From: Candidatus Aminicenantes bacterium | GTDB taxonomy: Bacteria; Acidobacteriota; Aminicenantia; Aminicenantales; UBA4085 | Direction: 5' to 3' | Assembly (NCBI GenBank): GCA_026393855.1 | Contig: JAPKZJ010000009.1 | Span: forward strand, 1 to 64,000 | Length of the DNA stretch: 64,000 nucleotides | Shown here: in pieces, positions 3,301 to 49,086 of the stretch | How positions within the stretch are numbered: position 1 is the stretch's first letter | Layout of the letters: every line of letters begins with the position of its first letter | Made by a program: the position numbers and the translations under genes | The notes under the pieces: model-generated | The model's database searches: none | What the model was told of the DNA's origin: nothing | What the model saw: only the letters and a program-made list of their open reading frames with translations

Positions 3301-3554
3301 GACGGCCTCCGGTTGGGGGTGAGCGTTCGGCGGGGCGGGGGAGCCGCTGCCGCAGGCATCTATTGTATGACGATCGGCCCGGCGCCGTCCACTGATCTCC
3401 TCGTTTTGCGGCTCGCCGCTCGGCGGCGACTGGCCGAAGGGAGCCCTGAATTGCAGCCTAGCTTCGGGATCAGAGGCTCGGAAATCCAGGGTTCCCATTG
3501 CCGGCGATTCCCTCTCCCCACCCGCAACGAGATGGAATGGCGCGGAGTTAATAG

Positions 3555-3568
3555 GTTGTGATCACAAC
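3555..3568. promoter_or_regulatory. Perfect 14-bp palindrome, possible operator
   Basis: GTTGTGATCACAAC is a perfect palindrome about 30 bases upstream of the candidate -35 of the MepK-like gene, in the 356-base divergent gap 3301-3656. Its TTGT/ACAA ends resemble GntR-type half-sites, but no cognate regulator is adjacent. The gap is AT-rich near the palindrome (3545-3600) and otherwise GC-rich with nothing recognisable. Confidence 0.4.
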
Positions 3569-3597
3569 AACAAGATATATCGTTACAAAATATTTGG

Positions 3598-3626
3598 TTG
3601 CACTCGGTCCTCTGAATCGGTAATAT
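3598..3626 (+). promoter_or_regulatory. Candidate sigma-70-type promoter of the MepK-like gene
   Basis: TTGCAC, a 17-base spacer, then TAATAT, followed about 30 bases later by the ATG at 3657. Spacing is ideal but each hexamer is only a partial match to consensus. It lies at the edge of an unusually AT-rich stretch. Confidence 0.4.
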
Positions 3627-3656
3627 CTCTCGTCTTGAGCCAAACCGCGATATAAC

Positions 3657-4229
3657 ATGATGACCGGAAAAAAGCTGAATCGATCGATCGGCAAAGTCGG
3701 AAAGACGCTGCCGGCCGCGATTTTTGCCATATTTATGGCCTTAACGCCCCTCTTTCCCATGGACGGCGGAACGCGCACGCTCTCGGGCGACCGACGGCTG
3801 TCTCTCTATGTCCTCAACAACCGCGAGCGGATCGAGATCGACTACTGCTTGGACGGCGTCTATGTCCCGGTGGCTTTGTCCATGATCGACCGCCTCCTCC
3901 GGGACCCGTTAAATGGCGGCGTCAAATCTATCGACCCCAAGCTCCTTGACCTGCTCTACGAGCTTCATGCCAAGGTCGGCGCAACCGGACCATTTACAGT
4001 GGTTTGCGGCTACCGTTCACCCCAGACGAACGCCGCTCTCCGGGCCCACAATCCCGCCGTGGCCGAGTATAGCCTGCACATGGAAGGGAAAGCCGTCGAT
4101 ATTCAGCTTCCCGGAGTCCCCCTTCAAACTCTCTATAAAGCCGCCTTGGATATGAAGGCCGGCGGGGTCGGCTATTATCCGAGATCCGGGTTCATCCACG
4201 TGGATGTCGGTCCGGTTCGCACTTGGTGA
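3657..4229 (+). CDS. YcbK/MepK-like murein endopeptidase (DUF882, M15-type)
   Basis: A 190-residue protein with an N-terminal membrane or signal segment (about 18-34) and a C-terminal zinc-peptidase fold related to M15 D-Ala-D-Ala peptidases. Probable zinc ligands are His141 and Asp148 in 'SLHMEGKAVDI' and His181 in 'FIHVDVG'; the 'CGYRSPQTN' turn is characteristic of YcbK. E. coli MepK cleaves 3-3 (mDAP-mDAP) peptidoglycan cross-links. The convergent neighbour 31 bases away is an LdtD-like L,D-transpeptidase, which makes those same cross-links, and this supports the assignment. The start has no strong Shine-Dalgarno sequence; the next in-frame ATG follows immediately. Confidence 0.85.
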   Translation: MMTGKKLNRSIGKVGKTLPAAIFAIFMALTPLFPMDGGTRTLSGDRRLSLYVLNNRERIEIDYCLDGVYVPVALSMIDRLLRDPLNGGVKSIDPKLLDLLYELHAKVGATGPFTVVCGYRSPQTNAALRAHNPAVAEYSLHMEGKAVDIQLPGVPLQTLYKAALDMKAGGVGYYPRSGFIHVDVGPVRTW

Positions 4230-4260
4230 CCGGCGGCCACGCCGATTTTCCCCTCCCGGC

Positions 4261-6009
4261 TCAACGCCCTGTCGCGGGGAGCGGGGCCGGCGGAATATCC
4301 CCCCCCAGCGCTTGGGCGAGTGCGGCATCCCGGCCATAGATATCCTTCCGAAAGTGAATGGCGCCGTCCGGTTCCCGCCAAGCCGTAAGATAGACGATAT
4401 AGACCGGGAGGGGGTCGGGGATGGAAAGCATTTTATTCGCGCCTCCGTCGATAGCCGCCTGGAGGCTTTCTTTTGTCCAAGCCGGGTCGTTGCGCAGGAG
4501 CGCGACTGCCAGGTCAAGCGGCCAGGCGATCCTAATGCAGCCGTGGCTGAAGGAGCGCGTAGACTGTTGAAAAAGCTCCCTCTGCGGGGTGTCGTGCAGG
4601 TAAACCGCCCACGGATTGGGGAACAGGAAGGCCAGCCGTCCGAGCGAGTTCAGGGGACCCGGGGCCTGAAGGACGCGGTACCGGAAATTCGACTCGTTCA
4701 GGGCGTTCCAATCCACGGCCGACGGATCGATCTCGGACGCCCCAGCGCCCCAGCCGTCATACAGCTTGTAGCCCCAGCGGCGGAAATAGCCTGGCTCCCG
4801 CTTGACGTTGGCCACTATTTCCTTGGCTGCGATCGTGGCCGGGACGTTCCAGACGGGGTTGACCTCAATTGTCGTCATCATCTCTTCGAAGACGGGGGTT
4901 TGGGCCGCGTTGGACCCGACGACCACCCGCATATCGAGGGTCACGGATCCATTCTCGACCAGATCGAGGTGGAAGGCCGGAATGTTGATCATGAGGTAGC
5001 GGCGGCCGAAGTCGCGGGGCAGCCAGCGCCAACGCTCCAGGTTGACCTTCAGCTGGGTCAGCCTCTCTTCGGCCGAAACGTTGAGCGAGGCCAGCGTTTC
5101 CTGGCCCACGACCCCGTCCGGGGCGGTCCCGAGGCGGGTCTGGAAACGACGGACCGCCGCCGCGACCGTATCATCGTAGACGTCCGCCGCCGCCGCAGGA
5201 CCCGCCGCGGCGGAGCCCGCGGCCAAGTCGCCGCCTAAAGCCAGCCTCTCCCGCAGCGCCAGAACCCGCGGCCCGGAGTCCCCGGGTCGGATCGAGGGGC
5301 CGATGGGTACCGGCGGCCAGCCCCCCCGGGCGACGACGTTGGTGAGTTCCCGGAGGGCTTCCCGCAGGCTCGCGTATTCCGGTCGGGAGGGTCGCAAGGT
5401 GTCCAGGGCGCCCGCCACGTCGCTCATATTCAGAGCCCGTCGCAGCACCGCTGCCGCGTCAGGGCGGTTCACTTGGATGAACCATTCCGACTCGATCATA
5501 GCCGGCTCGACGGTCCCGGAGGCGAGATGCGTGGCCAGCAGGATGAAGGCATCGCTCAGCAAGAGATCGAGGTCGGCCAGCCGGAGGGCCGAATCGCCGG
5601 CCGCGCCGCGCCGGTCCGTCTGCACAGCATCCAAAGCCGAACGGATGGGCTCGAGATGATAGGCGCCGCTCTTCAGCCCGTCCAGCCAAACTTGGGCTAG
5701 GACCCTGATCATGTCGTCAATGTTGGCCAGCGGCATCCCGTCCCGGGTCCAGGCCGGCTCGTACATCCGTCGTTCATAAAAGCGCTGTAAGGCCTCCGAT
5801 CCGACCAGGCAATCCCCGTTGCAGACCAGGCCTTCCCCTCGCGGTGAGACGGCCAGGCGTTCCCGGATGACGACGGCCGTATCGACGGGATCAGAGGGCG
5901 GGGGGAAAGCCTTTGCGGCGATTGACGGAAACGGCCGGGCGGCGATCAAGGCCAAGAGGGCGAAGCGGCAAAAATTCTTCAAATTCCATCCTGAAACATT
6001 GGTCTGCAC
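4261..6009 (-). CDS. L,D-transpeptidase of the YcbB/LdtD type
   Basis: A 582-residue exported protein. A hydrophobic signal segment (about 14-30) is followed by a scaffold region, a peptidoglycan-binding domain (about 255-325, 'LRERLALGG...DGVVGQETLASLN') and a C-terminal YkuD catalytic domain. The catalytic signature is complete: His472 in 'YLHDTP' and His489/Cys491 in 'SHGCIRI'. E. coli LdtD (YcbB) is of similar length and layout. The enzyme forms 3-3 cross-links in peptidoglycan in the periplasm. It is convergent with the MepK-like gene. Confidence 0.92.
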   Translation of the reverse strand: MQTNVSGWNLKNFCRFALLALIAARPFPSIAAKAFPPPSDPVDTAVVIRERLAVSPRGEGLVCNGDCLVGSEALQRFYERRMYEPAWTRDGMPLANIDDMIRVLAQVWLDGLKSGAYHLEPIRSALDAVQTDRRGAAGDSALRLADLDLLLSDAFILLATHLASGTVEPAMIESEWFIQVNRPDAAAVLRRALNMSDVAGALDTLRPSRPEYASLREALRELTNVVARGGWPPVPIGPSIRPGDSGPRVLALRERLALGGDLAAGSAAAGPAAAADVYDDTVAAAVRRFQTRLGTAPDGVVGQETLASLNVSAEERLTQLKVNLERWRWLPRDFGRRYLMINIPAFHLDLVENGSVTLDMRVVVGSNAAQTPVFEEMMTTIEVNPVWNVPATIAAKEIVANVKREPGYFRRWGYKLYDGWGAGASEIDPSAVDWNALNESNFRYRVLQAPGPLNSLGRLAFLFPNPWAVYLHDTPQRELFQQSTRSFSHGCIRIAWPLDLAVALLRNDPAWTKESLQAAIDGGANKMLSIPDPLPVYIVYLTAWREPDGAIHFRKDIYGRDAALAQALGGDIPPAPLPATGR

Positions 6010-6080
6010 GAAAACAACTCCCTTTTTTAATTTTCGCTATCCAGGCCGGCTTGTCAAGGGCGGCGCTGCTTTTTCCCTCC

Positions 6081-6110
6081 TTGAAGACGGGGGGCCGTTT
6101 CGCTTATGAT
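6081..6110 (+). promoter_or_regulatory. Candidate promoter of the alkaline phosphatase gene
   Basis: TTGAAG, an 18-base spacer, then TATGAT (five of six consensus bases), 24 bases before the GTG start. It lies in the 124-base divergent gap with the LdtD-like gene. No Pho box was recognised. Confidence 0.45.
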
Positions 6111-6133
6111 CTGGGCTTTCCAAGGAGAAAGCC

Positions 6134-7855
6134 GTGTCCCGATCCAACACTTGTCGACGCGCACTCGCCCTTGGCGTCTTAATCGCCTTCCTAGTTGTTG
6201 CCGGGCCCCCGATTTTGGGGCAATCCGCCGGCTTTACCCCCGCATCCGCGACGCCCCGGCAGGTCCGCGACCTGCGCGTGAATAATTTCATCCTGATGAT
6301 CCCCGACGGCATGGGGACCGCCCATGCGACCCTCGGGCGCTGGTACAAGTTCATCAAGACGGGCGACAACCGGCTGGTCTTCGACGACCTGGCCTGCGGC
6401 TTCGTCCGAACATATTGGGCGACCGGCCTGATCACGGATTCGGCTCCCGCGGCGGCGGCCATGGCCACGGGCTTCAAGACGTCGGCTAGCATGGTCTCTG
6501 TGCGCCCGACCAAGGTGACCATGCCGGGCGTGCAGGCCTTGGGCGAAGGCGAGGCTAATACCCCGGTCGCCACCGTTCTGGAAGCAGCCAAGGCCCGCGG
6601 CTTCGCCGCCGGCCTGGTGGTGACCTGCGAATTCCCGCATGCCACTCCGGCCGGGTTTTCCAGCCATTACATCCAGCGCAGCGCCATGGATCTGCTGGCT
6701 GAGCAGCAGGTCTACCAGGGCATGGACGTCGTCCTGGGAGGAGGCCGAAAATACCTCGATCCCAAGTCCCGCAAGGACAAGGAGGATCTGGTCCGGGTCC
6801 TCCAGGATCGCGGCTATCGGTATCTGACGGATCCGGCCGAGCTGGCTTCCGCCACGGAAAGCCGGATTTGGGGGGCCTTCGCCGAGACCAGCCTGGCCCG
6901 GGATTTGGACCGCGACCCGGCTAAGGAGCCGTCGCTCGAGGATATGACGAAAAAGGCCTTGACCGTCTTGTCACGCAATAAGAAAGGGTTTTTCCTGATG
7001 ATCGAAGGGAGCCAAGTGGATTGGGGCGCCCATGTCAATGATCCCGTCGGCACCGCTTCCGAGATCCTGGCCTTCGAGAAGGCCGTGGCTGCGGTTCTGG
7101 CGTTCGCCCGGCGCGACGGCCATACGGCGGTGATCATCGCCGCGGATCACAGCACGGGCGGGCTCAGCATCGGCAACCCGGACGTCGGCGACTTGCCGTT
7201 GGAGCGGTTCGCCGGAGCGATGAGCAAGCCCACGGCCACGCCGACCAAGACGGCGGCCGTGATCCTGGCCGATCCGCAGCCGGCCATGGATAAGGCCCGC
7301 CTGGCGGTCGCCTCCCTGCTCGGGATCGATGACTGGAAGCCGGCCGAAATTCCCGAGTTCGAGTCCTTGCTGCAGGAGAAAAACGCCAAGAAGCTGGAGA
7401 TTTTTCTGGCCAGAGCCCTATCCCGGCGGGCCGGGGTCGGCTGGGTCTTTACGGGCCACGGCGGTGAGGACGTCGGCTTGTACGGCTACCACCCTCGCGG
7501 CCCTCGGCTCTCCGGGGTCGTCCAGAACAGCGACATCGCGCTTTATATCGAGATGTGTCTGGGCTTGGACCTCAAGGGCCAGACGGCCGATCGCTTCGTC
7601 CGGGCGGATGCGGCCTTCGGGCCCGTCGGCGCGGAGTTGACCGTGGACGTGGGGGATTCGGAAAACCCCGTCCTGGTGGCGACGGCCAAAGGGCGGAGCT
7701 TGCGCCTGCCGGTCAACAAAAGCGCGGCCCTGCTAGACGGCCGCCCGGTCGAGCTGGACGGCGTCGTGGTCTGCACCTCCGTGATCGGCGGAAAATCGGC
7801 GCCCGAGCCCAAATACTGGTTTGTGCCGCGCCGCGCTGCGGCGCTACTAAAATAG
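6134..7855 (+). CDS. Alkaline phosphatase, exported
   Basis: A 573-residue phosphomonoesterase of the alkaline-phosphatase superfamily. Residues 1-29 are a signal peptide. The nucleophile Ser103 follows Asp102 in 'TDSAPAAAAMATG'. Further metal-site motifs are 'MIPDGMG' near residue 55, 'EGSQVDWGAH', 'AADHSTGG' and 'TGHGGEDV', together giving the usual two-zinc/one-magnesium site. The start is a GTG preceded by AAGGAGA, not an ATG. It would release phosphate from organic esters in the periplasm or outside the cell. After residue ~470 a short beta-rich tail follows the catalytic domain. Confidence 0.94.
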   Translation: MSRSNTCRRALALGVLIAFLVVAGPPILGQSAGFTPASATPRQVRDLRVNNFILMIPDGMGTAHATLGRWYKFIKTGDNRLVFDDLACGFVRTYWATGLITDSAPAAAAMATGFKTSASMVSVRPTKVTMPGVQALGEGEANTPVATVLEAAKARGFAAGLVVTCEFPHATPAGFSSHYIQRSAMDLLAEQQVYQGMDVVLGGGRKYLDPKSRKDKEDLVRVLQDRGYRYLTDPAELASATESRIWGAFAETSLARDLDRDPAKEPSLEDMTKKALTVLSRNKKGFFLMIEGSQVDWGAHVNDPVGTASEILAFEKAVAAVLAFARRDGHTAVIIAADHSTGGLSIGNPDVGDLPLERFAGAMSKPTATPTKTAAVILADPQPAMDKARLAVASLLGIDDWKPAEIPEFESLLQEKNAKKLEIFLARALSRRAGVGWVFTGHGGEDVGLYGYHPRGPRLSGVVQNSDIALYIEMCLGLDLKGQTADRFVRADAAFGPVGAELTVDVGDSENPVLVATAKGRSLRLPVNKSAALLDGRPVELDGVVVCTSVIGGKSAPEPKYWFVPRRAAALLK

Positions 7856-7869
7856 CCCGGCCCGGTCGT

Positions 7870-8436
7870 TTACTTCTTGAGCTGGGTCAATCCGGTAATA
7901 AACTTGGGCGCCCGCTTGAATTCGTCGAGGACGAGCTGGCCGTCGACGAACCGGCAGGTGGCGTCCTCATAGATTTTCGCTTCGCCCCGGCCCTTGGCAT
8001 CGACGTCCAGGATGACGACCATGAACATCAGGCCCGAATAAGGCGTCTGGGCTGCGCCCAGCTCGAGGCGCGCATTTTCGGCGATGAGCTCGATTCTTTG
8101 GCCTTTGTCCGTTGGGGTCGCCCTGGCCGCATGGAACTCGATGTTCATGCCCCGGCCGCCGGTGACGCGGAGCGAGCCCTTCTTCAAAGCCCGGAAGGCG
8201 GCGTGAAATCCGGCTTCGCCCTGATCGCTGTAGGCCTTGATGATTCCAAGGATCTCATCCGCTGTCGAGTAGCCGAGGATTTCGATGTTGATGGTCAGAA
8301 CCGGATCGGATTTCCCGTCGTTTTCAGTGAAGTAACGTCCTCGGTATTTCGTCTGGCCTATCGAGGGCAGGGTCAAGGCGATCACGGCGAGTGCGATCAA
8401 CGGAAGCGTCAGGCGGGAACGGCGGCTCAGAGACAT
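7870..8436 (-). CDS. Exported protein of unknown function, paralogue of the upstream gene
   Basis: A 188-residue protein with a clear signal peptide (about 1-27) and no recognised domain. It is clearly homologous along its length to the gene immediately upstream (8449-9036), sharing blocks such as 'RGMNI', 'FKRAPK' and 'VTGLTQ' or 'ITGLTQ'. Predicted secondary structure is mixed alpha/beta. Only 12 bases separate the two genes, so they are probably one operon that arose by tandem duplication. I do not recognise the family and assign no function. Confidence 0.8.
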   Translation of the reverse strand: MSLSRRSRLTLPLIALAVIALTLPSIGQTKYRGRYFTENDGKSDPVLTINIEILGYSTADEILGIIKAYSDQGEAGFHAAFRALKKGSLRVTGGRGMNIEFHAARATPTDKGQRIELIAENARLELGAAQTPYSGLMFMVVILDVDAKGRGEAKIYEDATCRFVDGQLVLDEFKRAPKFITGLTQLKK

Positions 8437-36785: not shown

Positions 36786-38153
36786 ATGAATCAAGACGCG
36801 ACGTCGATTTCCGAGGACCGGCTGAATGTCCTCGTCGTCGACGACGAGGTCAACATCCGCCGCGTGCTGGCTGTCTGCCTGGAAACACGCGGTCATCGCG
36901 TCACCGCCGTAGGGCGATTCCCTGATGCGCTGACGGAAGCCGGCCGGCAGGCCTTCGACTTGGCTTTCGTCGATCTCCGGTTGGGGACCGATAACGGCCT
37001 CGACCTCATTCCCCGTTTATTGGCGGAGTCGCCCTGGCTCAAGATCGTCGTCATAACCGCTTATGCTTCCGTCGAAACCGCGGTCGAGGCCATGCGCCGG
37101 GGCGCCGTCGATTACATCCCCAAGCCCTTCGTGCCCGAACAAGTCCTGCTTGTGGCGGACCGGGTGGGCGCGTTGCGCCGGATGGAGCGGCGGCTATCGA
37201 CCTTGCAGGATGATCTCCGCCGAGCCAACCCGGAAGTCACATTCCAGACCTGGAATCCCGGGATGGCGAGGGCCATCGAAACCGCCCGCCAGGTGGCCGG
37301 ATCCGAGGCGGTTGTCCTCCTGCGCGGGCCGAGCGGCACGGGCAAATCCGTGCTGGCCCGGGCCATCCATGCTTGGAGCCCCAGAAGCGCCAAACCGCTG
37401 GGGATCATCTCCTGCCCCTCGCTCAGCCCGGAGCTTTTAGAGAGCGAGCTCTTCGGCCATGCCAAAGGGTCGTTCACCGGCGCCGTCCGCGACAATCCCG
37501 GCCGCATCGCCGCCTGTGAAGGCGGGACTCTGCTGCTCGACGAGATCGGCGACCTGCCTCTTTCGATTCAGCCGAAGCTGTTGCGCTTTCTACAGGATCG
37601 GGAATTCGAGCGGGTCGGGGAAGCCCGAACCCGCAGTGCCGACGTCCGGATCATTGCCGCCACGAACGCCGACCTCGGAGAGGCGGTGGCGCGCGGCTCA
37701 TTCCGCGAGGATCTGTTCTATCGCTTGAACGTTTTTCCGATCGAGCTTCCGTCCTTGCGGGAGCGGGTCGAGGACATCGGGACGCTGGCCGCGGAGATGC
37801 TGGACTTCTTCGCCGGCCAGAACCATAAATCCGGGCTGGCCTTTTCGTCCGATGCCTTGGAAGCGCTGCGGGCCTATGATTGGCCGGGGAATATCCGTGA
37901 ACTCCGCAATGTCGTCGAGCGGGCCGTTATCCTCTGCCCCTCCGGCCTCGTCGGCGTCGAGCATCTGCCCCCGGGGCTGGTTCCTTGCGTGCCCGCCCTC
38001 CAACTCGGTGCCCTGGTCTCCCTGGAACGGATCGAGGAAGCCCATATCCGCGGCGTCATCGCGGCGGCCCGCTCGCTCCAGGAAGCCGCTGAAATCCTGG
38101 GCATCGATCAAGCCACTCTATGGCGGAAGCGGAAGCTCTACGGGTTCGACTGA
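36786..38153 (+). CDS. Sigma-54-dependent response regulator (NtrC family) at the head of the kdp region
   Basis: A 455-residue regulator. The receiver domain (12-130) has the acidic pair Asp19/Asp20, phospho-acceptor Asp63 and Lys113. The AAA+ domain (about 150-385) has Walker A 'GPSGTGKS' (181-188), the sigma-54 contact loop 'GSFTGA' (228-233, Ala to Ser variant of GAFTGA) and Walker B 'LLLDEIGD'. A Fis-type helix-turn-helix ends the protein ('AAEILGIDQATLWRKRK'). A sigma-54 promoter lies 120 bases downstream in front of the histidine kinase and kdp genes, the obvious target. Overall layout resembles AlgB/NtrC, not the OmpR-type KdpE. Confidence 0.93.
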   Translation: MNQDATSISEDRLNVLVVDDEVNIRRVLAVCLETRGHRVTAVGRFPDALTEAGRQAFDLAFVDLRLGTDNGLDLIPRLLAESPWLKIVVITAYASVETAVEAMRRGAVDYIPKPFVPEQVLLVADRVGALRRMERRLSTLQDDLRRANPEVTFQTWNPGMARAIETARQVAGSEAVVLLRGPSGTGKSVLARAIHAWSPRSAKPLGIISCPSLSPELLESELFGHAKGSFTGAVRDNPGRIAACEGGTLLLDEIGDLPLSIQPKLLRFLQDREFERVGEARTRSADVRIIAATNADLGEAVARGSFREDLFYRLNVFPIELPSLRERVEDIGTLAAEMLDFFAGQNHKSGLAFSSDALEALRAYDWPGNIRELRNVVERAVILCPSGLVGVEHLPPGLVPCVPALQLGALVSLERIEEAHIRGVIAAARSLQEAAEILGIDQATLWRKRKLYGFD

Positions 38154-38273
38154 GGCCTTCCGCCCGCGTCCGCCGCACTGCTTCTCGCAAGGCTTATCTG
38201 GACCGATCGTGCATTCTGCAATCCCGTTCCCGCCTTGTCCGCTCTTCCCCCCCTGAAAACTCGCCTTTCGGCC

Positions 38274-38289
38274 TGGCACATCGCTTGCA
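38274..38289 (+). promoter_or_regulatory. Sigma-54 (-24/-12) promoter for the histidine kinase-kdp operon
   Basis: TGGCAC, 5 bases, TTGCA: the invariant GG (38275-38276) and GC (38287-38288) are exactly 10 bases apart, as sigma-54 requires. Counting from the -12 position puts the transcript start near 38300, three bases before the GGAGG ribosome site (38303-38307) of the kinase gene at 38317. A possible activator half-site pair TGCATTCTGCA lies at 38210-38220. The sigma-54 activator gene is immediately upstream. Confidence 0.8.
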
Positions 38290-38316: not shown

Positions 38317-40182
38317 ATGCTCGGTATCAGGCAAAAGCTGGTCCTCGGTTTTGGCGGCCTGTTCGTCTTGGTAGGGGGAATCGGCCTCCTGACAATGGCG
38401 AAAATCTCCGTCTTGGGGCGTTCTATCGATGTCATCCTGCGCGAAAACTTTAAGAGCGTCATCGCCTGCCAGTCCATGAAGGAGGCCCTGGAGCGCATCG
38501 ACAGCGGCGTCCTGTTCTCCTTCATGGGCCGTCCGGACGAGAGCCGCCGGCTGGTCGAGGACAACCGCAAAACCTTCGCCGCGGCGCTCGACGCGGAGCT
38601 TCGCAACATCACCGTTCCCGGAGAAGGGGAGAAAGCCGAAAAAATCCCGGCCCTTTATGCCGCCTATACTGCTTCCATCGACGCTGTCGTCGATGCCTCC
38701 CGTCCGCTGGCCGAGCGCCAGGCCCTCTATCTCGACGGCCTTTATCCCCGGTTTCTCGAGCTCAAGGGATTGGCCCAGAACATCCTGGATCTCAATCAGG
38801 CCAATATGGTTGAAGCCAACGACAGGGCCCGGGCCCGGGCCGCGGCGGCCCATCGCCAGCTCCTGATGGTCATTATCGCCACGGCGGCCGTCGCCCTCAT
38901 CTATAGCTTGTCCATCCGGCGCTGGATCTTATGGCCGATTCGCCGTTTGACGGTCTTTGCCGATGAAGCCAGGCGCGGCAACCTCGACCTCGTCCTCCAG
39001 CCCAAGGGCCGCGACGAGATCGGCCGTTTGGCCGAGGCCTTCAACGACATGGCCGAAGGGCTTAGGCGCCTGCGCCGGCAGGACCGGCTGGAAATCCAGC
39101 GAACTCGCCGGGCCACTGAGGAAGTGTTCAAAGCCCTGCCGACGCCGATCGCCGTTCTCGACCTCGATGGCCGCGTCGAGCTGGCGACCGAGCCGGCCGA
39201 CCGGTTGTTCGGGCTCAAGCCGGGAGTGGACGCCAGAAGCCTGGGCCAGGATTGGCTGACGACCCTGATCGACCGGGCGGCGGCGGAGAACCGGCCGGCC
39301 GAACCGAAGGACGGAACGGCCGGCTTTCTGCAGAGATTCGACGGCTTGAGCGAGCGCTTGTTCCATCCCGTCGTCCTGCCGCTGTCCACGGCCGGCGGGC
39401 CCGACGAGCCGTCCGGCCTGGCCGTCCTTCTGCTCGACGTCACCCATCTGCACGAGCAGCTTGAGCTCAAGCGAAGTGTGGTGGCCACCGTCTCCCATCA
39501 GCTGAAGACCCCGCTGACCGCCCTGCGGATGTCTCTCCATATGCTTCTTGACGATAGCCTAGGCGACCTCAACCCCAAGCAGGCCGAATTGGCCATCGCG
39601 GCCCGCGACGAAAGCGAGAGGCTGGTTCGCATCGTCAATGACCTGCTGGACATAGATCGCATCGAATCCGGACGGGCCCAAATGGCCATCCAGCCCGTGG
39701 ATCCGGTTTCGCTGGTCCGGGACGCGGCCGACCGCCATTTTTTCGAGGCCAGGGATCGCGGCGTCACCCTGGCGGCTTCCGTGCCGCCGGATCTGCCCCG
39801 TGTCCTGGCCGACCGGGGCCGGATCGCCCTGGTCCTCGATAATCTGCTGTCCAATGCTTTCCGTTATACCGAGGCGGGCGGATCGATCCGCATCGAGGCC
39901 GAAAGCGACCCGGTCGGAGTCCGATTCCGTGTCCGCGATACGGGCCGGGGCATCCCGCGCGAGCATCTCGACCAGGTCTTTGCGCCGTTCTTCCGCGCCC
40001 CCGGACAGGACCCCGCTTCGGGCGTGGGGCTGGGACTGGCCATCGTCAAAGAGACAATCCGCCATCACGGCGGCGAGGTCGGCGTCGAAAGCGAGCCGGG
40101 GCAAGGGACGATGTTCTGGTTCACCCTGCCGGCGGCCGGAGGCGAAACCGAAGGGCCGAAGGTCGAGGCGGTGCGTCCATGA
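38317..40182 (+). CDS. Membrane sensor histidine kinase
   Basis: A 621-residue kinase. Two membrane helices (about 8-27 and 187-206) enclose a helical periplasmic sensor domain. A HAMP linker (about 207-260), a PAS-like domain (about 268-380), HisKA with phospho-acceptor His394 in 'VSHQLKTP' and HATPase (about 495-605, 'DTGRGIP', 'GVGLGLA') follow. The layout resembles KinB. It is the likely partner of the upstream NtrC-type regulator and is the first gene after the sigma-54 promoter. Its TGA overlaps the ATG of kdpF, so kinase and pump are translationally linked. The sensed signal is unknown. Confidence 0.92.
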   Translation: MLGIRQKLVLGFGGLFVLVGGIGLLTMAKISVLGRSIDVILRENFKSVIACQSMKEALERIDSGVLFSFMGRPDESRRLVEDNRKTFAAALDAELRNITVPGEGEKAEKIPALYAAYTASIDAVVDASRPLAERQALYLDGLYPRFLELKGLAQNILDLNQANMVEANDRARARAAAAHRQLLMVIIATAAVALIYSLSIRRWILWPIRRLTVFADEARRGNLDLVLQPKGRDEIGRLAEAFNDMAEGLRRLRRQDRLEIQRTRRATEEVFKALPTPIAVLDLDGRVELATEPADRLFGLKPGVDARSLGQDWLTTLIDRAAAENRPAEPKDGTAGFLQRFDGLSERLFHPVVLPLSTAGGPDEPSGLAVLLLDVTHLHEQLELKRSVVATVSHQLKTPLTALRMSLHMLLDDSLGDLNPKQAELAIAARDESERLVRIVNDLLDIDRIESGRAQMAIQPVDPVSLVRDAADRHFFEARDRGVTLAASVPPDLPRVLADRGRIALVLDNLLSNAFRYTEAGGSIRIEAESDPVGVRFRVRDTGRGIPREHLDQVFAPFFRAPGQDPASGVGLGLAIVKETIRHHGGEVGVESEPGQGTMFWFTLPAAGGETEGPKVEAVRP

Positions 40183-40280: not shown

Positions 40281-41960
40281 ATGAGTCTGATGACGATGGC
40301 CGTCATTCTGCTGGGCGCGTCGGCCCTGTCTTTTCCGCTGGGCCGTTGGATGGCGGTCGTCTTCGAATCGCCCTCCCCCGAGGCGGCCGGGACCGGCCTG
40401 CGGGCTCGGATTCTGCGCGCGGTCGGCGGCCGGGCCGTCGACGAGGATCAGTCGGCCGGCCGCTACATCCGGTCGCTTCTGGTTTTCAACGCCGTTCTCT
40501 TTGTCCTGGTCGTCCTGATCCTGTCCTTGCAAGCCGTCCTGCCGGGGAACCCCGACCATAAAGGCCGGTTGTCTTTTCACCTCATCTTCCACATCGCCTC
40601 TTCTTTCGTCACCAACACCAACCTGCAACATTATTCCGGCGAGGCCACATTGAGCCCGGCGGCCCAGATCTACGGCCTGATGGTCCTCCAGTTCCTCTCG
40701 GCCGCGACCGGCTTGGCCGCCTTGGCTGCCCTGGCCCGCGGCTTGTCCGGCCGCGTCAAGGTCGGCAACTTCCTTCGCGACGTCGTTTCGGCCGCGCTCT
40801 TCGTCTTGCTCCCGCTGTCGCTTGTAGGCGGAGCCGTTCTCGTTCTGGGCGGCGTGCCGATGACTTGGGGCGGCGCCGTGACGGCTCGGACGCTGGAAGG
40901 GGGGATCCAGACGATCTCCCGCGGCCCCGTGGCCGCCTTCGAGGCCATCAAGCAAATCGGCTCCAACGGCGGCGGATATTTCGGTCCCAACTCCGCCCAT
41001 CCCTTTGAAAACCCGACCGGGCTGACCAACCTCATCGAAATGCTGGCCATGCTGATCCTTCCGATGGCCTGCGTCTGGATGTTCGGCCGGATGACCCGGC
41101 GGCGCCGCCATGCCGCCGTCGTCTTCGGGGTTATGGCCGTCCTGATCTTAGTGAACGTCACCCTCTGCTTGGGGCTGGAGATGCGCCCTTCCCCGGTGTT
41201 CCGCGTTCCCGCGGCCGCGCCGGCGAGCCTGAATTGGGAGGGCCAGGAGCTGCGTTTCGGATCCGGGGCGGGGCCGTTTTGGTCCGCCCTGACGGCTTCC
41301 CTGGGCAACGGATCGGTCAACGGCATGCTGGACAGCCATCATCCCGCCACGGTCCTCATTCTCCTCGTCGGGATGTGGACGAACGTCGCCTTCGGCGGGG
41401 TCGGAGTCGGCTTCATCAACATGTTCCTCTATATCGTCATCGGGGTCTTCATCTGCGGTCTGATGGTCGGGCGGACGCCGGAGTATATGTCGCGCAAGAT
41501 TGAAACTCCGGAAATGAAGCTGGCCCTGTTCGGACTCCTCGTGCATCCGATCTTGATCCTGGGCGGGACGGTCTTATTCACGGCCATCCCCAGGCTGGCC
41601 GGGTTCTCGCCTCCCCTGGGCGCTCACGGCTTCAGCCGGATCCTCTACGAGTTCACTTCGGCCTCGGCTAATAACGGTTCCGGCCTGGAGGGCTTGGCCG
41701 ACGGCACCGCGGCCTGGAATCTGGCCAGCGCTGCGGTCATGATGATCGGGCGCTATCTGCCGATCGTCCTGCCGCTCCTTATCGGCGGCCGGCTCGCCGC
41801 CAAGGCTCCCACGCCCGAGACCGCGGGCTCGTTCCGCATCGATACGCCGCTGTTCGGTTTCATCCTATTGGGGACGGTCCTCCTGGTGGGGGCTCTGCTG
41901 TTCATGCCTGTCGCCGTCCTCGGTCCGGTGACGGAGATTCTGGCCGGCCCGGGACGATGA
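40281..41960 (+). CDS. kdpA: K+-transporting ATPase subunit KdpA
   Basis: A 559-residue potassium-translocating subunit (E. coli 557). The four selectivity-filter repeats are visible: 'TNTNLQHYSGE', 'SNGGGYFGPNSAHPFENPT', 'TNVAFGGVG' and 'ANNGSGLEG'. About ten membrane helices. It forms the K+ channel part of the Kdp pump. GGAG precedes the ATG at 40281, and kdpB follows after 7 bases. Confidence 0.97.
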   Translation: MSLMTMAVILLGASALSFPLGRWMAVVFESPSPEAAGTGLRARILRAVGGRAVDEDQSAGRYIRSLLVFNAVLFVLVVLILSLQAVLPGNPDHKGRLSFHLIFHIASSFVTNTNLQHYSGEATLSPAAQIYGLMVLQFLSAATGLAALAALARGLSGRVKVGNFLRDVVSAALFVLLPLSLVGGAVLVLGGVPMTWGGAVTARTLEGGIQTISRGPVAAFEAIKQIGSNGGGYFGPNSAHPFENPTGLTNLIEMLAMLILPMACVWMFGRMTRRRRHAAVVFGVMAVLILVNVTLCLGLEMRPSPVFRVPAAAPASLNWEGQELRFGSGAGPFWSALTASLGNGSVNGMLDSHHPATVLILLVGMWTNVAFGGVGVGFINMFLYIVIGVFICGLMVGRTPEYMSRKIETPEMKLALFGLLVHPILILGGTVLFTAIPRLAGFSPPLGAHGFSRILYEFTSASANNGSGLEGLADGTAAWNLASAAVMMIGRYLPIVLPLLIGGRLAAKAPTPETAGSFRIDTPLFGFILLGTVLLVGALLFMPVAVLGPVTEILAGPGR

Positions 41961-41967
41961 GGGAAAG

Positions 41968-44052
<2,085 letters not shown>

Positions 44053-44271: not shown

Positions 44272-44430
44272 CGGAACTCCGCATTCGAGATTTTCCGGTC
44301 ATGGAGCCCCCCCATTTTGTTTCAGATCCGTTAGATTGTCGCGTGCTCAAACAGCCCTCGGCGCCTGGCATAAGCCAGGTTCCCTCAGAGAACTATGGAA
44401 AAAGGCGCCGGCCTTGCAATTTCGCCGTTG
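44272..44430. repeat. Interspersed repeat element, copy A, inserted between kdpB and kdpC
   Basis: Matches copy B near 58.3-58.5 kb, in the same orientation. Identical blocks: CGGAACTCCGCATTCGAGAT (44272-44291), 23 bases beginning GCGTGCTCAAACAGCC (44341-44363), with the same 69-base offset between them in both copies; then 25 of 28 bases at 44380-44407 ('TTCCCTCAGAGA...GGAAAAAGGCG') and 16 of 17 at about 44419-44435. An AGTCC[C/T]CGCGAGGGCGG motif precedes both. No protein is conserved between the copies. Confidence 0.8.
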
Positions 44431-44470
44431 GCCGATATCCCCTTCCGCGTTGTTATCACGGAGTTGGGAG

Positions 44471-45097
44471 ATGATCCAAAAAAAAGGGGCCGAATGGATT
44501 CGGGAGACGGCGGCTTCGCTGCGGATCGCCGCCGTCTCGTTGGTGGTCCTGGGCGGGATTTACCCCGTGCTCCTCGGCGGTCTGGGGAAGGCGGTGGTCC
44601 CTTCCGCCGCCGCCGGATGGCTGGTGCGCGATGCGGCCGGAGCCGTCGTCGGCAGCGCATTGATGGCCCAGAAGTTCAGCCGGCCGGAATACTTTTGGCC
44701 GCGGCCCTCGGCCGTCGACTTCAACGCTTCGGCGGCTGGTGGGAGCAACCTCCCGCCCGGAAGCCCGGATTTGGCGGCCCGGGTGAAGGCGCGGATCGCG
44801 GAGCTTGGTGGGACAACCGCGAATCCCGTCCCGGTCGACCTCCTGGCCGCTTCCGGCAGCGGGCTTGATCCCCACATCACCCTGGCCGGCGCGGAATTCC
44901 AGATCGATCGCGTGGCGGCGGCTCGCCGTCTCGAACCCGCCATCCTCCGGGATTGGCTGCGGGCCTGGTCCCGCGCCCGGCGCGAGGGCCGCGGCCAGGC
45001 CCCGTTGGTCAATGTCCTGGGCTTGAATAGAACTTTGGACGAGCGCTTCGGCCGTCCGCCCGTTGCGGCGGCCCCGGCGCGGAAGGAGGCACGATGA
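44471..45097 (+). CDS. kdpC: K+-transporting ATPase subunit KdpC
   Basis: A 208-residue single-pass subunit (membrane helix about 15-38) that promotes ATP binding by KdpB. Family blocks are present: 'SRPEYFWPRPSA', 'GSNLPPGSP', 'ASGSGLDPHITL' and the 'VNVLGLNRTLDERFG' end. GGAG seven bases upstream fixes the start at 44471; the frame extends upstream into the repeat but that part is not KdpC. Its TGA overlaps the ATG of the KdpD-like gene by 4 bases. Confidence 0.95.
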   Translation: MIQKKGAEWIRETAASLRIAAVSLVVLGGIYPVLLGGLGKAVVPSAAAGWLVRDAAGAVVGSALMAQKFSRPEYFWPRPSAVDFNASAAGGSNLPPGSPDLAARVKARIAELGGTTANPVPVDLLAASGSGLDPHITLAGAEFQIDRVAAARRLEPAILRDWLRAWSRARREGRGQAPLVNVLGLNRTLDERFGRPPVAAAPARKEAR

Positions 45098-46749
45098 TCG
45101 GAAATCGAGCCGACAGCTTTTTACGCCTGATCCGGAGATCGCAGCGGGGGAAGCTCAAGATCTACCTCGGCTATTGCGCCGGCGTGGGTAAGACCTTCCA
45201 GATGCTGCAGGACGGCCACCGCCTGGCGGCCGAAGGAATCGACGTCGTCATCGGCTACGTCGAGCCCCACGGCCGGGCCGAGACGCAGGCCTTGACCGCC
45301 GGCCTGGAGGCCGTGCCCCGGCGCAAAACTCCCTATCGGGGCATTGATCTTGAGGAGATGGACCTGGACGCGGTTCTGGCCCGGCGGCCCGCCGTCGTCC
45401 TGGTGGACGAGCTGGCCCATACCAACGTCCCCGGAGGCCGCAACGAGAAGCGATTCCAGGACGTCGAGGAGATTCTGGCCGCCGGCATCCATGTCGTCTC
45501 CACCCTCAACATCCAGCATCTGGAAAGCCTCTATAACATGGTCGAGGGGGCGGTGGGGGTCAAAGTCCGGGAGCGGGTGCCCGATAAGATCGTCCTCGAC
45601 GCCGATCAGATCGTCAATGTCGACGTGACGACCGAGGATCTGCTCAAGCGGTTGGGCGAAGGCAAGATCTATCCGCGCGAGCGGATCTCCTCGGCCCTGG
45701 CCTCCTTCTTCCGGGCCGAAAACCTGGAGCAACTGCGTGAGCTGACCCTGCGCGAGCTGGCCTCCCAGATCGACGTCCGGCGCCGCGATCCCGGCCACGA
45801 GGAATCACGATCCGGATTGGATCAGGTCCTGGTCTGCCTGGGATCGAGGGGGCCGAACAGCGAGGCGCTGCTGCGATACGGCTCTCGCCTGGCCGGGCGT
45901 TTGAACCGCAATTGGTACGCGCTCTACGTCCAGACGCCCAACGAGAACCCCGAGCTGATCGACGCCCAGACCCAGCGGATCCTTTCCAATACTCTGGCCC
46001 TCGCCCGGCGCTTGGGGGCGACTGTATTTACGTACAAAGGGGAGAACGTCGTCGAGACCATCCTCCGCTTCGCCCGGGAATACCGGATCGGCCACATCGT
46101 CATCGGCCGGCCACGCCCGGTCTCCCGGATGAAACGGCTGATCGGCCGCCGCGACGTCGCCGAATGCCTGATCCGGCAAGCGCGGGGCTTGACGGTGGTC
46201 GTCGCCGACAACCGCGTCGAGGCGATCGGAACGGTCGGCGAGGGGGCGGCGCCCTTGGTGCGCGAAGCGATGGAAGACAGCCGCCCGGCTTCGAAGTCGG
46301 CCTTCGAGCAGGCGTCGATCCGGGCCGTGATCTGGCGGGAGCCGATGGCCAAGGAGGAAGCTTACCGCAAGCTCCTGCACCAGGCTCTGGCCGGAAGTCC
46401 CGGCATCGATGAGGCCAGAGTCTGGGACATCTTGCGTTCGCGGGAAGCCCAGGGGTCCACTTATTTGGCCGAGGACCTGGCTTTGCCGCACGCCAGGATC
46501 GAGGGATTGGACGAGCCGATTCTGGGCGTGGCTTCGGCCGCGAAAGGGATCCACGAACCCGAGACCGGCCGCGTCGTCAGGATCGTCTTCCTGCTTCTCT
46601 CTCCGGTCCAGCCAAGTGATTGCCATGTCCGGCTCCTGGCCGAACTGGGGTCGATGGCCCGCGACGACGCTTTCATGCAGGGGTTGGCGGCGGCGCCGAA
46701 CCCGCGCGAGATCGTCGATCGGGTTCGGGCCACCCTTCTAGGCGCCTAG
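45094..46749 (+). CDS. KdpD sensor domain - universal stress domain - PTS EIIA fusion protein (no histidine kinase)
   Basis: A 551-residue cytoplasmic protein. Residues about 18-230 are the KdpD N-terminal sensor domain with Walker A 'GYCAGVGKT' (26-34) and 'VDELAHTN' (104-111). Residues about 242-373 are the KdpD universal-stress-type domain ('LDQVLVCLGSRGPNSEALL', 'HIVIGRP'). Residues about 410-550 align with EIIA of the nitrogen/fructose PTS: 'GSTYLAEDLALPHARIE' carries the phospho-acceptor His466, and His511 matches the second active-site His. The four membrane helices and kinase domain of KdpD are absent. It is coupled to kdpC by ATGA overlap. It probably tunes Kdp expression or activity according to PTS phosphorylation. 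Confidence 0.9.
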   Translation: MIGNRADSFLRLIRRSQRGKLKIYLGYCAGVGKTFQMLQDGHRLAAEGIDVVIGYVEPHGRAETQALTAGLEAVPRRKTPYRGIDLEEMDLDAVLARRPAVVLVDELAHTNVPGGRNEKRFQDVEEILAAGIHVVSTLNIQHLESLYNMVEGAVGVKVRERVPDKIVLDADQIVNVDVTTEDLLKRLGEGKIYPRERISSALASFFRAENLEQLRELTLRELASQIDVRRRDPGHEESRSGLDQVLVCLGSRGPNSEALLRYGSRLAGRLNRNWYALYVQTPNENPELIDAQTQRILSNTLALARRLGATVFTYKGENVVETILRFAREYRIGHIVIGRPRPVSRMKRLIGRRDVAECLIRQARGLTVVVADNRVEAIGTVGEGAAPLVREAMEDSRPASKSAFEQASIRAVIWREPMAKEEAYRKLLHQALAGSPGIDEARVWDILRSREAQGSTYLAEDLALPHARIEGLDEPILGVASAAKGIHEPETGRVVRIVFLLLSPVQPSDCHVRLLAELGSMARDDAFMQGLAAAPNPREIVDRVRATLLGA

Positions 46750-48335
46750 CGCCGCGCTTCGGCCGGGGTCCGGATCTTCTCCAGGATCGTGATCTTGACG
46801 AAGTCCTTGGTCTCCTGAACGCGGATCTTGGGCGCCTTAAGAGTGAAGCCGCCGGTCCAGATCTGAGCGTCCACATAGACGTCCTTGCCCTCCTTGCCGG
46901 CGCTGGTCAGCTTGTACCCCTTGCCCCCGAATTTTCTTTCGGCGTCCACCCACTTGACATAGTAGAGTTGGTCCTGGACGATTGGGGTTTTGGCGCCGCT
47001 GAATAGAACGTCCTGGACCTTGACGGCTTCAATGCCGTCGGGAAAGATGTGGACCAGGCCGAGGTCGTAGACGGGGCCCGGCGCCAAGGGGTTGAGGTAC
47101 TCTCCCGCCGGCTTGAAGTCGACGATGAAGGCCCGCCCCTTGCGGCGCTGGACCCGACACCAGGCTTCGTCCCGCTTGGCGATCACGTCGCCGTGTTTCT
47201 TGCGCAGCTCGGCCAGCGGATAGCGATCCTTCAACCCTTCGCCGGCCGCGGCGAGGTCTTCGTCCGAAAGGCCGAGCCTGGTCAGCAGATCGCCGGCCAA
47301 GAGCTTCTGGCTCTGAAAGAAGCCAACCTGCCAACCCGGAAAGAGCCGCGACAGCAGAAGCGCCTGGAAGCTGCCGTACTGGTAGCATTTCGTCTTGGCT
47401 TCCATGGATTTGCCGCGTGCTTCGATCAGAGCCTTGATCTCCTTGTCGAAGTAGGCGCCGGCGTTCGCGAAGCCGGCGAACCATGGGTCGTCCGCCTTCC
47501 CGACGAGGGGTTTGTAGCCGCCCTCTTTCATCAGCTCCAGCGTCCGAGTGGTCGAATAGACGGCCGTGCCCTCTATCAAGTCGTCCTCGGATTCCTGGTT
47601 GGCCTCGAGCGCGGTCATGGAGGCGGCTCGTTTCAGCCGCCGGGCGGCCAGGAAGTCGGCAGCCCGGGCCCTGACCTCGGCCGGTTCCGGGGCGAGCCAA
47701 GCCTTCTCCAGGGCCAGCCCTTCGATCTCGGAGTAGACGGCATAGTCCGCGTCGGTGTTCGTCTGCAGGTTGCCGAAGCGGTAGCGGTAAACATTGTGTT
47801 GGAAGCAGTGGAAGAGCTCGTGGATATTGATCAGAATCTGATTCTCGCTGTCCCTGGGGTTAACGGCCGGGCTCTCTTCCGTTTTGCCGGTCGGCTCGGC
47901 GGCCGGGGGGAGCGCGCTCATGTGCAAGCGGACGGTGTTGACCATCCTTTCGCTGCCCATTATCAGGGGGCCCCCGCCCCCGAGAATCGGCGGCCTGAGG
48001 TCGAGCGGGATTTCTTGCCGGCGGTCCAGGTAAACCTTTTTGCCTTGCACTTCGAGCCCCGGGACGACCTCGAATCCCTGCATCGGGCTGGGATGGCCGA
48101 CCAGCAGGCGGACGCCGTTGGCGTATTCGAACAGAAAGGGGACGTCGCGGTAGCCTGTCCAGCCCGGCCAAACCCGGGCCGCGTATTGGTCGAGGATGTT
48201 CCAGGTCTCCTCCAACCGCTTGAGCTCGACCCTGAGGTATTCGGGCAGGTCCGGAGCGGGGGGAGCGGCTGAAGCGGCCAGGCCGGCCAGCCCGAGCAGA
48301 GCGGCAAGGACGATGATCAGGCGCGGGGGTCTCAT
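46746..48335 (-). CDS. Exported HExxH-containing protein, possible zinc metallopeptidase
   Basis: A 529-residue exported protein (signal peptide about 1-23). 'IHELFHCFQH' (171-180) contains a HExxH motif; a later 'DLIEGTAVYS' or 'YSEIEGLALEKA' could supply the third zinc ligand. The C-terminal ~150 residues are beta-rich. No named peptidase family was recognised. GGAGG precedes the ATG at 48335. It follows an exported DUF-type gene by 10 bases. Its stop codon shares CTAG (46746-46749) with the convergent KdpD-like gene. Confidence 0.68.
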   Translation of the reverse strand: MRPPRLIIVLAALLGLAGLAASAAPPAPDLPEYLRVELKRLEETWNILDQYAARVWPGWTGYRDVPFLFEYANGVRLLVGHPSPMQGFEVVPGLEVQGKKVYLDRRQEIPLDLRPPILGGGGPLIMGSERMVNTVRLHMSALPPAAEPTGKTEESPAVNPRDSENQILINIHELFHCFQHNVYRYRFGNLQTNTDADYAVYSEIEGLALEKAWLAPEPAEVRARAADFLAARRLKRAASMTALEANQESEDDLIEGTAVYSTTRTLELMKEGGYKPLVGKADDPWFAGFANAGAYFDKEIKALIEARGKSMEAKTKCYQYGSFQALLLSRLFPGWQVGFFQSQKLLAGDLLTRLGLSDEDLAAAGEGLKDRYPLAELRKKHGDVIAKRDEAWCRVQRRKGRAFIVDFKPAGEYLNPLAPGPVYDLGLVHIFPDGIEAVKVQDVLFSGAKTPIVQDQLYYVKWVDAERKFGGKGYKLTSAGKEGKDVYVDAQIWTGGFTLKAPKIRVQETKDFVKITILEKIRTPAEARR

Positions 48336-48345
48336 GGCCTCCTCC

Positions 48346-49086
48346 TCATTGCCCCAGCCACTCGTCGCGGTTTGCCGCCTTGACAAAAGCCGGCGGGACA
48401 TCGTAGATCCCGGCCGGCGGCGCGGCCGTTTCGATCTTGGTCATTACGTTCTCCCAAACCGTCCGCCCGGCGATGGGCGGTTCCTGGGTGACGATGGAAC
48501 GGATCGGTAGGCGGTCGCGGAGCGCGGAGGTTTTCCCGTAGACGCGGGCCAGGGTTCCGTCGAGCCCGGGCGCGATGAGTCTCTGGAAATATTTGCGGGC
48601 GTCGATCGGGACGTCCTTGGCCAACCAGATCTCCCGCGTCTCTTCGGCGTACTCGGCGACTCCGGTCAGGAGGGCTTTGACGCAGGTCCGGCCGTCGATG
48701 ACCTTGTCCTCGCCCGTCATTTTCCCCGTCCAGATATACGAGGGCGCATAGCTCCAGCCGAGCTCTTGGACGCGGAGGGGGCCCTTGTCTTCGGCTTCCG
48801 GAACGACCGGGGCGCCGAGCATTTCCTCCAGGTATTTCATCGTCCGGACGTTGAGCACCCAGCGCTTGCCCAAGTCGTAGCGGTCGATCGTCGTGACAGC
48901 GCCGGCTCGGGCATAAACTTTGTCCGCGCCGATCCAGATTTCGCTCGTCTGGGGCGGGTAGGTCCGGCCCATATAGCTGCGGCGCGATTCCGCCAGGATA
49001 TGGTCGTCGGCCGAAGCCGGAACGGCCAGGGCGGCTGTCCCGAGCCCTAAAAGAACCGCCGCGGCGATTATTTTCTTTATACCCAT
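48346..49086 (-). CDS. Exported protein of unknown function upstream of the HExxH gene
   Basis: A 246-residue protein with a signal peptide (about 1-26). The mature part is predominantly beta ('SEIWIGADKVYARAGAVTTIDRYDLGKRWVLNVRTMKYLEEM', given here only as a composition clue for residues about 47-88), the repeating pattern of LolA/DUF4412-like folds that bind lipids or denatured substrates. It is first in an operon with the HExxH protein. Function is not known. Confidence 0.7.
   Translation of the reverse strand: MGIKKIIAAAVLLGLGTAALAVPASADDHILAESRRSYMGRTYPPQTSEIWIGADKVYARAGAVTTIDRYDLGKRWVLNVRTMKYLEEMLGAPVVPEAEDKGPLRVQELGWSYAPSYIWTGKMTGEDKVIDGRTCVKALLTGVAEYAEETREIWLAKDVPIDARKYFQRLIAPGLDGTLARVYGKTSALRDRLPIRSIVTQEPPIAGRTVWENVMTKIETAAPPAGIYDVPPAFVKAANRDEWLGQ

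What the first reader, a model, noticed from the sequence alone, without database searches (positions are those of the whole stretch)
45094..46749. KdpD sensor domain fused to a PTS EIIA domain in place of the histidine kinase
The last gene of the kdp operon encodes KdpD-N, the KdpD universal-stress domain, and then a complete EIIA-type domain with both active-site histidines (His466, His511). The membrane helices and kinase core of KdpD are gone. In E. coli, unphosphorylated EIIA-Ntr (PtsN) is known to bind KdpD and stimulate kdp expression, so a covalent fusion would hard-wire PTS phosphorylation to K+ uptake. I cannot search databases, so its novelty is untested.
Basis: partly seen in the sequence, partly recalled or inferred. 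Interest (0 to 1): 0.92.

Follow-up and report, generated by a model that had tools for sequence, protein, structure and literature searches.

The report
KdpD sensor half fused to EIIA
A bacterial potassium-control protein carries a sugar-phosphotransferase (PTS) domain on its tail, and the same protein, with its own two-gene switch, recurs across many bacterial phyla next to three unrelated kinds of potassium transporter, which suggests a portable circuit linking energy status to potassium uptake.

Summary
ORF 45094-46749 (+) encodes KdpD-N, a KdpD-type Usp domain and an EIIA domain; His466 aligns with the phospho-acceptor. It is neither an artefact nor unique: at least 98 distinct loci in many phyla (Aminicenantes, Desulfobacterota, Chlorobiales, Hydrogenedentes, Verrucomicrobia and others) encode it. 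His466 and the KdpD-N serine-kinase residues are unchanged in all 86 members aligned. The histidine kinase is not lost: it is a separate gene in the same cassette, behind a sigma54 response regulator. Of 66 fusion loci with both upstream, 52 carry kdpABC, 9 kimA, 4 both, 1 trkAH. A -24/-12 promoter about 30 nt before the kinase gene, and paired CTTG-N7-CAAG sites, are conserved far beyond chance. Best explanation: a soluble, PTS-phosphorylatable half of a split KdpD that feeds the kinase/regulator pair and, where KdpB is present, also acts as the KdpB serine kinase. The E. coli precedent does not transfer directly: PtsN docks on the KdpD transmitter domain (GAF in S. fredii), both absent here. 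Desulfovibrio vulgaris has the same cassette without EIIA. I found no description of the fusion in the open-access literature searched. All function is inferred.

The parts
45094..46749 (+). KdpD-N/Usp/EIIA fusion, 551 aa, last gene of the cassette
   Evidence: conserved in 98 distinct loci
45142..45771 (+). KdpD domain (residues 17-226), atypical serine kinase residues: Walker A 26-34, F35, D105, E106, R186
   Evidence: Pfam PF02702 E 2.1e-92; residues invariant in 86/86, aromatic at 35 in 84/86
45823..46185 (+). KdpD-type Usp domain (residues 244-364)
   Evidence: Pfam just under cut-off; Foldseek match to KdpD Usp 7ji4
46351..46719 (+). EIIA (PTS_EIIA_2) domain (residues 420-542)
   Evidence: Pfam E 8.5e-16; PDB PtsN 3urr by sequence and fold
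46489..46491 (+). codon of His466, the EIIA phospho-acceptor
   Evidence: alignment to PtsN; H in 86/86 members
46624..46626 (+). codon of His511, second EIIA histidine; Gln in half of the family
36786..38153 (+). sigma54-dependent response regulator (REC-AAA-Fis)
   Evidence: Pfam; conserved upstream of the fusion in 66 loci
38177..38191 (+). putative regulator (enhancer) site 1, degenerate CTTG-N7-CAAG, at -140 from the kinase start
   Evidence: family palindrome enriched 46 vs 0.4 expected; position in window
38208..38222 (+). putative regulator (enhancer) site 2, degenerate CTTG-N7-CAAG, at -109
38274..38289 (+). sigma54 -24/-12 promoter element TGGCACATCGCTTGCA
   Evidence: 1 mismatch; same position in 43 of 78 loci vs 0.5 expected
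38317..40182 (+). membrane histidine kinase (HAMP-HisKA-HATPase), the separate kinase half
   Evidence: Pfam; conserved in cassette
40281..41960 (+). kdpA
   Evidence: Pfam/NCBIfam
41968..44052 (+). kdpB, with the TGES serine (Ser174) that KdpD-N would phosphorylate
44336..45097 (+). kdpC (ORF as listed; the true start is probably an internal ATG near 44471)
   Evidence: Pfam E 3.3e-52

Best explanation
The protein is the cytoplasmic sensor half of a split KdpD with a PTS-phosphorylatable EIIA tail. HPr~P is expected to phosphorylate His466, so the EIIA state reports PEP/PTS status. The protein acts with the histidine kinase and sigma54 regulator of its own cassette, which switch on kinase, transporter and fusion genes from a -24/-12 promoter. 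Where KdpB is present, its KdpD-N domain also acts as the serine kinase that shuts the pump off at high K+. Shown here by sequence: domains, residues, cassette, promoter and sites, presence of EI and HPr, interchangeable transporters. Inferred: phosphorylation of His466, contact with the kinase, serine kinase activity, and the direction of control.
For: His466 and all KdpD-N kinase residues invariant in 86/86 fusions and KdpB TGES serine in 87/87. EI in 25/25 and HPr in 24/25 genomes tested. Of 66 fused loci with regulator and kinase upstream, 10 have no kdpB in the cassette but KimA (9) or TrkAH (1), and the kinase is the direct neighbour in 18 of 98 loci: the constant partners are kinase and regulator, not the pump. 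KdpD-part distances correlate 0.84 with regulator, 0.80 with kinase, 0.69 with KdpB. sigma54 element and paired palindromes conserved upstream of the kinase gene. Catalytic drift (Glu to Asp, aromatic to Leu) seen only in some KdpB-less cassettes. D. vulgaris: regulator of the EIIA-less cassette binds its own kdp operon (PMC3333781). KdpD-N serine kinase shown experimentally in E. coli and D. geothermalis (PMC11018627).
Against: No direct evidence of contact between fusion and kinase; the partial correlation of fusion with kinase, given the other genes, is only 0.08, while regulator (0.45) and KdpB (0.26) are higher. Gene order in most loci places the fusion after kdpC, as expected of a pump regulator. 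Most KimA-linked fusions keep intact kinase residues although KdpB is not in the cassette. TGES is conserved in P-type ATPases generally, so its presence is weak support.
Confidence: 0.5

Rival explanations
1. Post-translational only: the fusion is solely a KdpB serine kinase whose activity is set by the EIIA phosphorylation state (with or without a Usp ligand); the kinase/regulator pair works without it.
For: Short KdpD/Usp of D. geothermalis works this way with c-di-AMP (PMC11018627). All kinase residues kept in 86/86; positive partial correlation with KdpB (0.26, bootstrap 0.10-0.41); kdpC is the upstream neighbour in 75 of 98 loci.
Against: Ten cassettes with kinase and regulator have KimA or Trk and no KdpB. 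EIIA-less relatives sit between kinase and regulator with no kdp gene on the stretch fetched (L181, L183).
Confidence: 0.25
2. Transcriptional only: EIIA and KdpD/Usp modulate the kinase, as PtsN does for E. coli KdpD, and the KdpD-N nucleotide site is only a ligand sensor.
For: Constant linkage to kinase and regulator, transporter interchangeable; sigma54 promoter architecture.
Against: Walker B Asp/Glu and the adenine-site residues are kept wherever KdpB is present, and the isolated KdpD-N domain is a proven KdpB kinase in E. coli (PMC11018627).
Confidence: 0.13
3. EIIA is a non-phosphorylated docking domain; the PTS plays no part and the tail only recruits a partner (kinase, Trk-type protein or transporter).
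For: Second histidine replaced by Gln in 42 of 86; one fusion genome without detectable HPr and some with weak HPr matches; EIIA absent from a few family members.
Against: Acceptor His invariant in 86/86 and the PHxR Arg in 85/86; EI present in all genomes tested.
Confidence: 0.1

Closest known systems
Short KdpD/Usp (Deinococcus geothermalis type, PMC11018627; NCBIfam NF038185 KdpD_non_kinase)
   Same: KdpD-N plus Usp, no membrane or histidine kinase part, downstream of the pump, all serine-kinase residues kept
   Different: Carries a C-terminal EIIA domain; scores 355 bits, below the NF038185 cut-off of 550; c-di-AMP motif only partly met
Desulfovibrio vulgaris kdp operon DVU3334-3339 (PMC3333781)
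   Same: sigma54 regulator, separate histidine kinase, KdpD/Usp protein and kdp pump in one operon; regulator binds its own operon
   Different: No EIIA domain is described there; the fusion family also occurs with KimA and Trk
E. coli / Sinorhizobium PtsN acting on KdpD (PMC9239096, PMC13104625)
   Same: Nitrogen-type EIIA coupled to KdpD and K+ uptake
   Different: Two separate proteins; docking on transmitter or GAF domains that are absent here; EIIA is covalently attached to KdpD-N/Usp
E. coli tandem serine/histidine kinase KdpD
   Same: KdpD-N and Usp domains
   Different: No transmembrane, GAF, DHp or CA domains; kinase is a separate protein of another subfamily, regulator is NtrC-type instead of KdpE

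Membership tests
KdpD-N atypical serine kinase of KdpB | Walker A G-X5-GKT, Walker B Asp/Glu, aromatic/Arg adenine pair | tested here: met
   G26-GKT34, D105/E106, F35, R186 in the window; Walker A, D, E and R in 86/86
KdpD-N atypical serine kinase of KdpB | KdpB substrate with TGES serine | tested here: met
   Ser174 in window KdpB; 87/87 loci; not discriminating, since the motif is common to P-type ATPases
KdpD-N atypical serine kinase of KdpB | phosphorylates KdpB | not testable with these tools
   needs purified proteins
Sensor histidine kinase KdpD (full length) | four TM helices, GAF, DHp and CA domains in the same chain | tested here: not met
   Pfam finds only KdpD, Usp, EIIA; PRK10490 360 bits vs cut-off 1123
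PTS EIIA (fructose/nitrogen type, PF00359) | fold and profile match | tested here: met
   58.7 bits, cut-off 27; PtsN by phmmer and Foldseek
PTS EIIA (fructose/nitrogen type, PF00359) | phospho-acceptor His in PHxR | tested here: met
   His466; 86/86
PTS EIIA (fructose/nitrogen type, PF00359) | second active-site His | tested here: inconclusive
   His511 in the window genus; H 43, Q 42 of 86 in the family
PtsN equivalog (TIGR01419) | score over 138.7 bits, stand-alone protein | tested here: not met
   39.9 bits, fused
c-di-AMP-binding KdpD-Usp | (A/G/C)XSXSX2N..(Y/F) motif | tested here: inconclusive
   Family: first Cys, first Ser and Asn kept, second Ser replaced by R/K/H; the window also lacks the first Ser; DAC gene present in genome. 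Motif derived from Firmicutes only
sigma54-controlled operon | -24/-12 element, sigma54 activator, rpoN | tested here: met
   38274-38289, conserved position in 43/78 loci, Sigma54_activat in regulator, rpoN in genome; transcription itself not tested

The most novel reading that the evidence does not exclude
KdpD/Usp/EIIA, a histidine kinase and a sigma54 regulator form a portable control module, spread over many phyla, that couples PTS status to K+ uptake and is plugged into unrelated transporters (KdpABC, KimA, TrkAH); KdpD-N then has partners other than KdpB.
Probability: 0.45. Interest if true: 0.78.

Novelty: new variant of a known kind. Interest (0 to 1): 0.62.

Why it matters
How the PTS talks to potassium uptake is disputed even in E. 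coli. A covalent EIIA-KdpD protein, kept across phyla with an invariant phospho-acceptor, makes that link directly testable, and the KimA- and Trk-linked forms test whether the KdpD domain has roles beyond KdpB. It also suggests that 'KdpD' annotations in several phyla hide a PTS-linked regulator.

Tried and rejected
A first regex count suggested that 9 of 58 KdpB lack the TGES serine; read at the aligned position it is TGES in 87/87, so that argument was dropped. Loss of stand-alone PtsN from the own genome was considered: ptsN is missing from the rpoN cluster, but two other EIIA-2 ORFs exist besides the HPr-EI-EIIA protein, so no claim is made. L106 was mislabelled unfused in the tree run; its sequence is fused. 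The AlphaFold model (pTM 0.36) is too weak to discuss domain docking. Paper searches for the fusion gave no description.

Full report
What is there. The window ORF 45094-46749 is a 551-residue fusion of KdpD-N, Usp and EIIA. It closes a cassette of six genes on one strand: sigma54 response regulator, HAMP histidine kinase, kdpA, kdpB, kdpC, fusion. The fusion start overlaps the kdpC stop. The next ORF downstream (46746-48401) is on the other strand.

Organism. The nearest records are Acidobacteriota and Candidatus Aminicenantes metagenome assemblies: L057 with 83% identity over the Usp-EIIA part, then L084, L099, L132. In the same order, nine genomes including the own one carry the intact full-length fusion. 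In a 347-genome sample of the phylum, matches outside the order were KdpD/Usp or long KdpD without EIIA coverage.

Distribution. One scan of species genomes returned 80 loci, nearly all with the fusion, titled Deltaproteobacteria/Desulfobacterales/Syntrophaceae, Chlorobiaceae, Hydrogenedentes, Riflebacteria, Verrucomicrobia, Lentisphaeria, Phycisphaerales, Dadabacteria and Latescibacterota. Follow-up searches found matches in 45 of 98 genomes of the order around a Chlorobiaceae genome, nearly all full-length, and full-length fusions in about 15 of 297 genomes of the phylum around a Deltaproteobacterium. After removal of duplicates 98 fused loci were held. On a quick tree of the KdpD/Usp part the fused proteins fall in one supported group that also holds a few EIIA-less members, consistent with one main origin and a few losses; the order of gain and loss is not settled.

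Residues. Of 86 aligned fusions, all 86 keep Walker A, D105, E106, R186 and His466; position 35 is Y, W or F in 84; position 511 is H in 43 and Q in 42. The equivalent residues of E. coli KdpD are needed for its KdpB serine kinase activity (PMC11018627). In some KdpB-less cassettes they have drifted: L058 (Trk) has Asp for the catalytic Glu, and the KimA group L164-L167, L169 has Leu for the aromatic residue; other KimA-linked members keep them.

Cassette logic. Of 66 distinct fused loci with both regulator and kinase upstream, 52 have KdpB, 9 KimA only, 4 both, 1 TrkAH; the detected gene directly upstream of the fusion is kdpC in 75 and the kinase in 18. KimA was identified by its match to PDB 6s3k (E 6.5e-65), Trk by Pfam. 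In rearranged loci such as L059-L061, L115 and L126 the kinase again lies directly before the fusion. Distances of the KdpD part correlate best with regulator (0.84) and kinase (0.80), less with KdpB (0.69), although the partial correlation with the kinase alone is near zero.

Promoter. A -24/-12 element lies at 38274-38289, 27 nt before the kinase start. Within 150 nt of the kinase start such a site occurs in 43 of 78 loci against 0.5 expected from first-order shuffles, mostly 25-33 nt before the start. Palindromes CTTG-N7-CAAG occur 46 times against 0.4 expected, and almost only with spacing 7, often as a pair near -141 and -109. The window has degenerate copies at -140 and -109 (38177-38191, 38208-38222). 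rpoN is in the genome. In D. vulgaris the regulator DVU3334 was shown to target its own kdp operon, whose KdpD is likewise split in two ORFs (PMC3333781). Chlorobiales loci with KimA mostly lack the exact element, so their promoter is open.

PTS and c-di-AMP. The own genome holds rpoN-hpf-hprK-rapZ-EIIA(man)-HPr-EI in one cluster, and an HPr-EI-EIIA protein elsewhere. EI was found in 25 of 25 and HPr in 24 of 25 genomes tested, among them relatives without the fusion. A diadenylate cyclase is present in 24 of 25, but the c-di-AMP motif of Firmicutes KdpD-Usp is only partly met.

Interpretation. The fusion is best read as the soluble sensor half of a split KdpD with a PTS input, acting with the cassette's kinase and regulator and, where KdpB is present, as its serine kinase. 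It is not a case of EIIA standing in for the histidine kinase. Sign and mechanism of control are unknown: unphosphorylated PtsN is the active form in E. coli and S. fredii, the phosphorylated form in P. putida (PMC13104625). No paper found in the open-access library describes the fusion; most subscription papers could not be searched, so novelty in the literature is provisional. The architecture must exist in public protein databases, since the genomes are public.

Noticed in passing
L147 (own genome C24:8000-16000), 2196-7994, minus strand: The rpoN-hpf-hprK-rapZ-EIIA(man)-HPr-EI cluster lacks the usual ptsN between hpf and hprK (the two ORFs overlap), while relatives such as G005, G016, G044 and G046 keep an EIIA about 2 kb before HPr.
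   Followed up: partly
L181 3632-9815; L183: EIIA-less KdpD/Usp next to a histidine kinase and an NtrC-type regulator with TRAP-transporter-like genes upstream and no kdp genes on the stretch held.
   Followed up: partly
L013 (G001:C317), same genus: The fusion gene is broken over several frames in this low-completeness assembly; decay or sequencing error.
   Followed up: no
G251:C40, G330:C8, G124:C42, G304:C171, G301:C689, G274:C41, G286:C1: Tandem pairs of KdpD/Usp genes, the second only about 35% identical to the query, in other genomes of the phylum.
   Followed up: no
L164 and L110 (one Chlorobiales contig): A KimA-linked and a Kdp-linked fusion cassette lie about 14 kb apart in one genome.
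   Followed up: no
kdpA of the cassettes (window 40281-41960; L084 4955-6601): Two kdpA types (about 58% and 38% identical to the window's) occur behind similar regulator/kinase/fusion genes, which suggests exchange of the pump within the cassette.
   Followed up: partly
fusion residue 511 across loci: The second EIIA histidine is His in half and Gln in half of the family; meaning unknown.
   Followed up: partly
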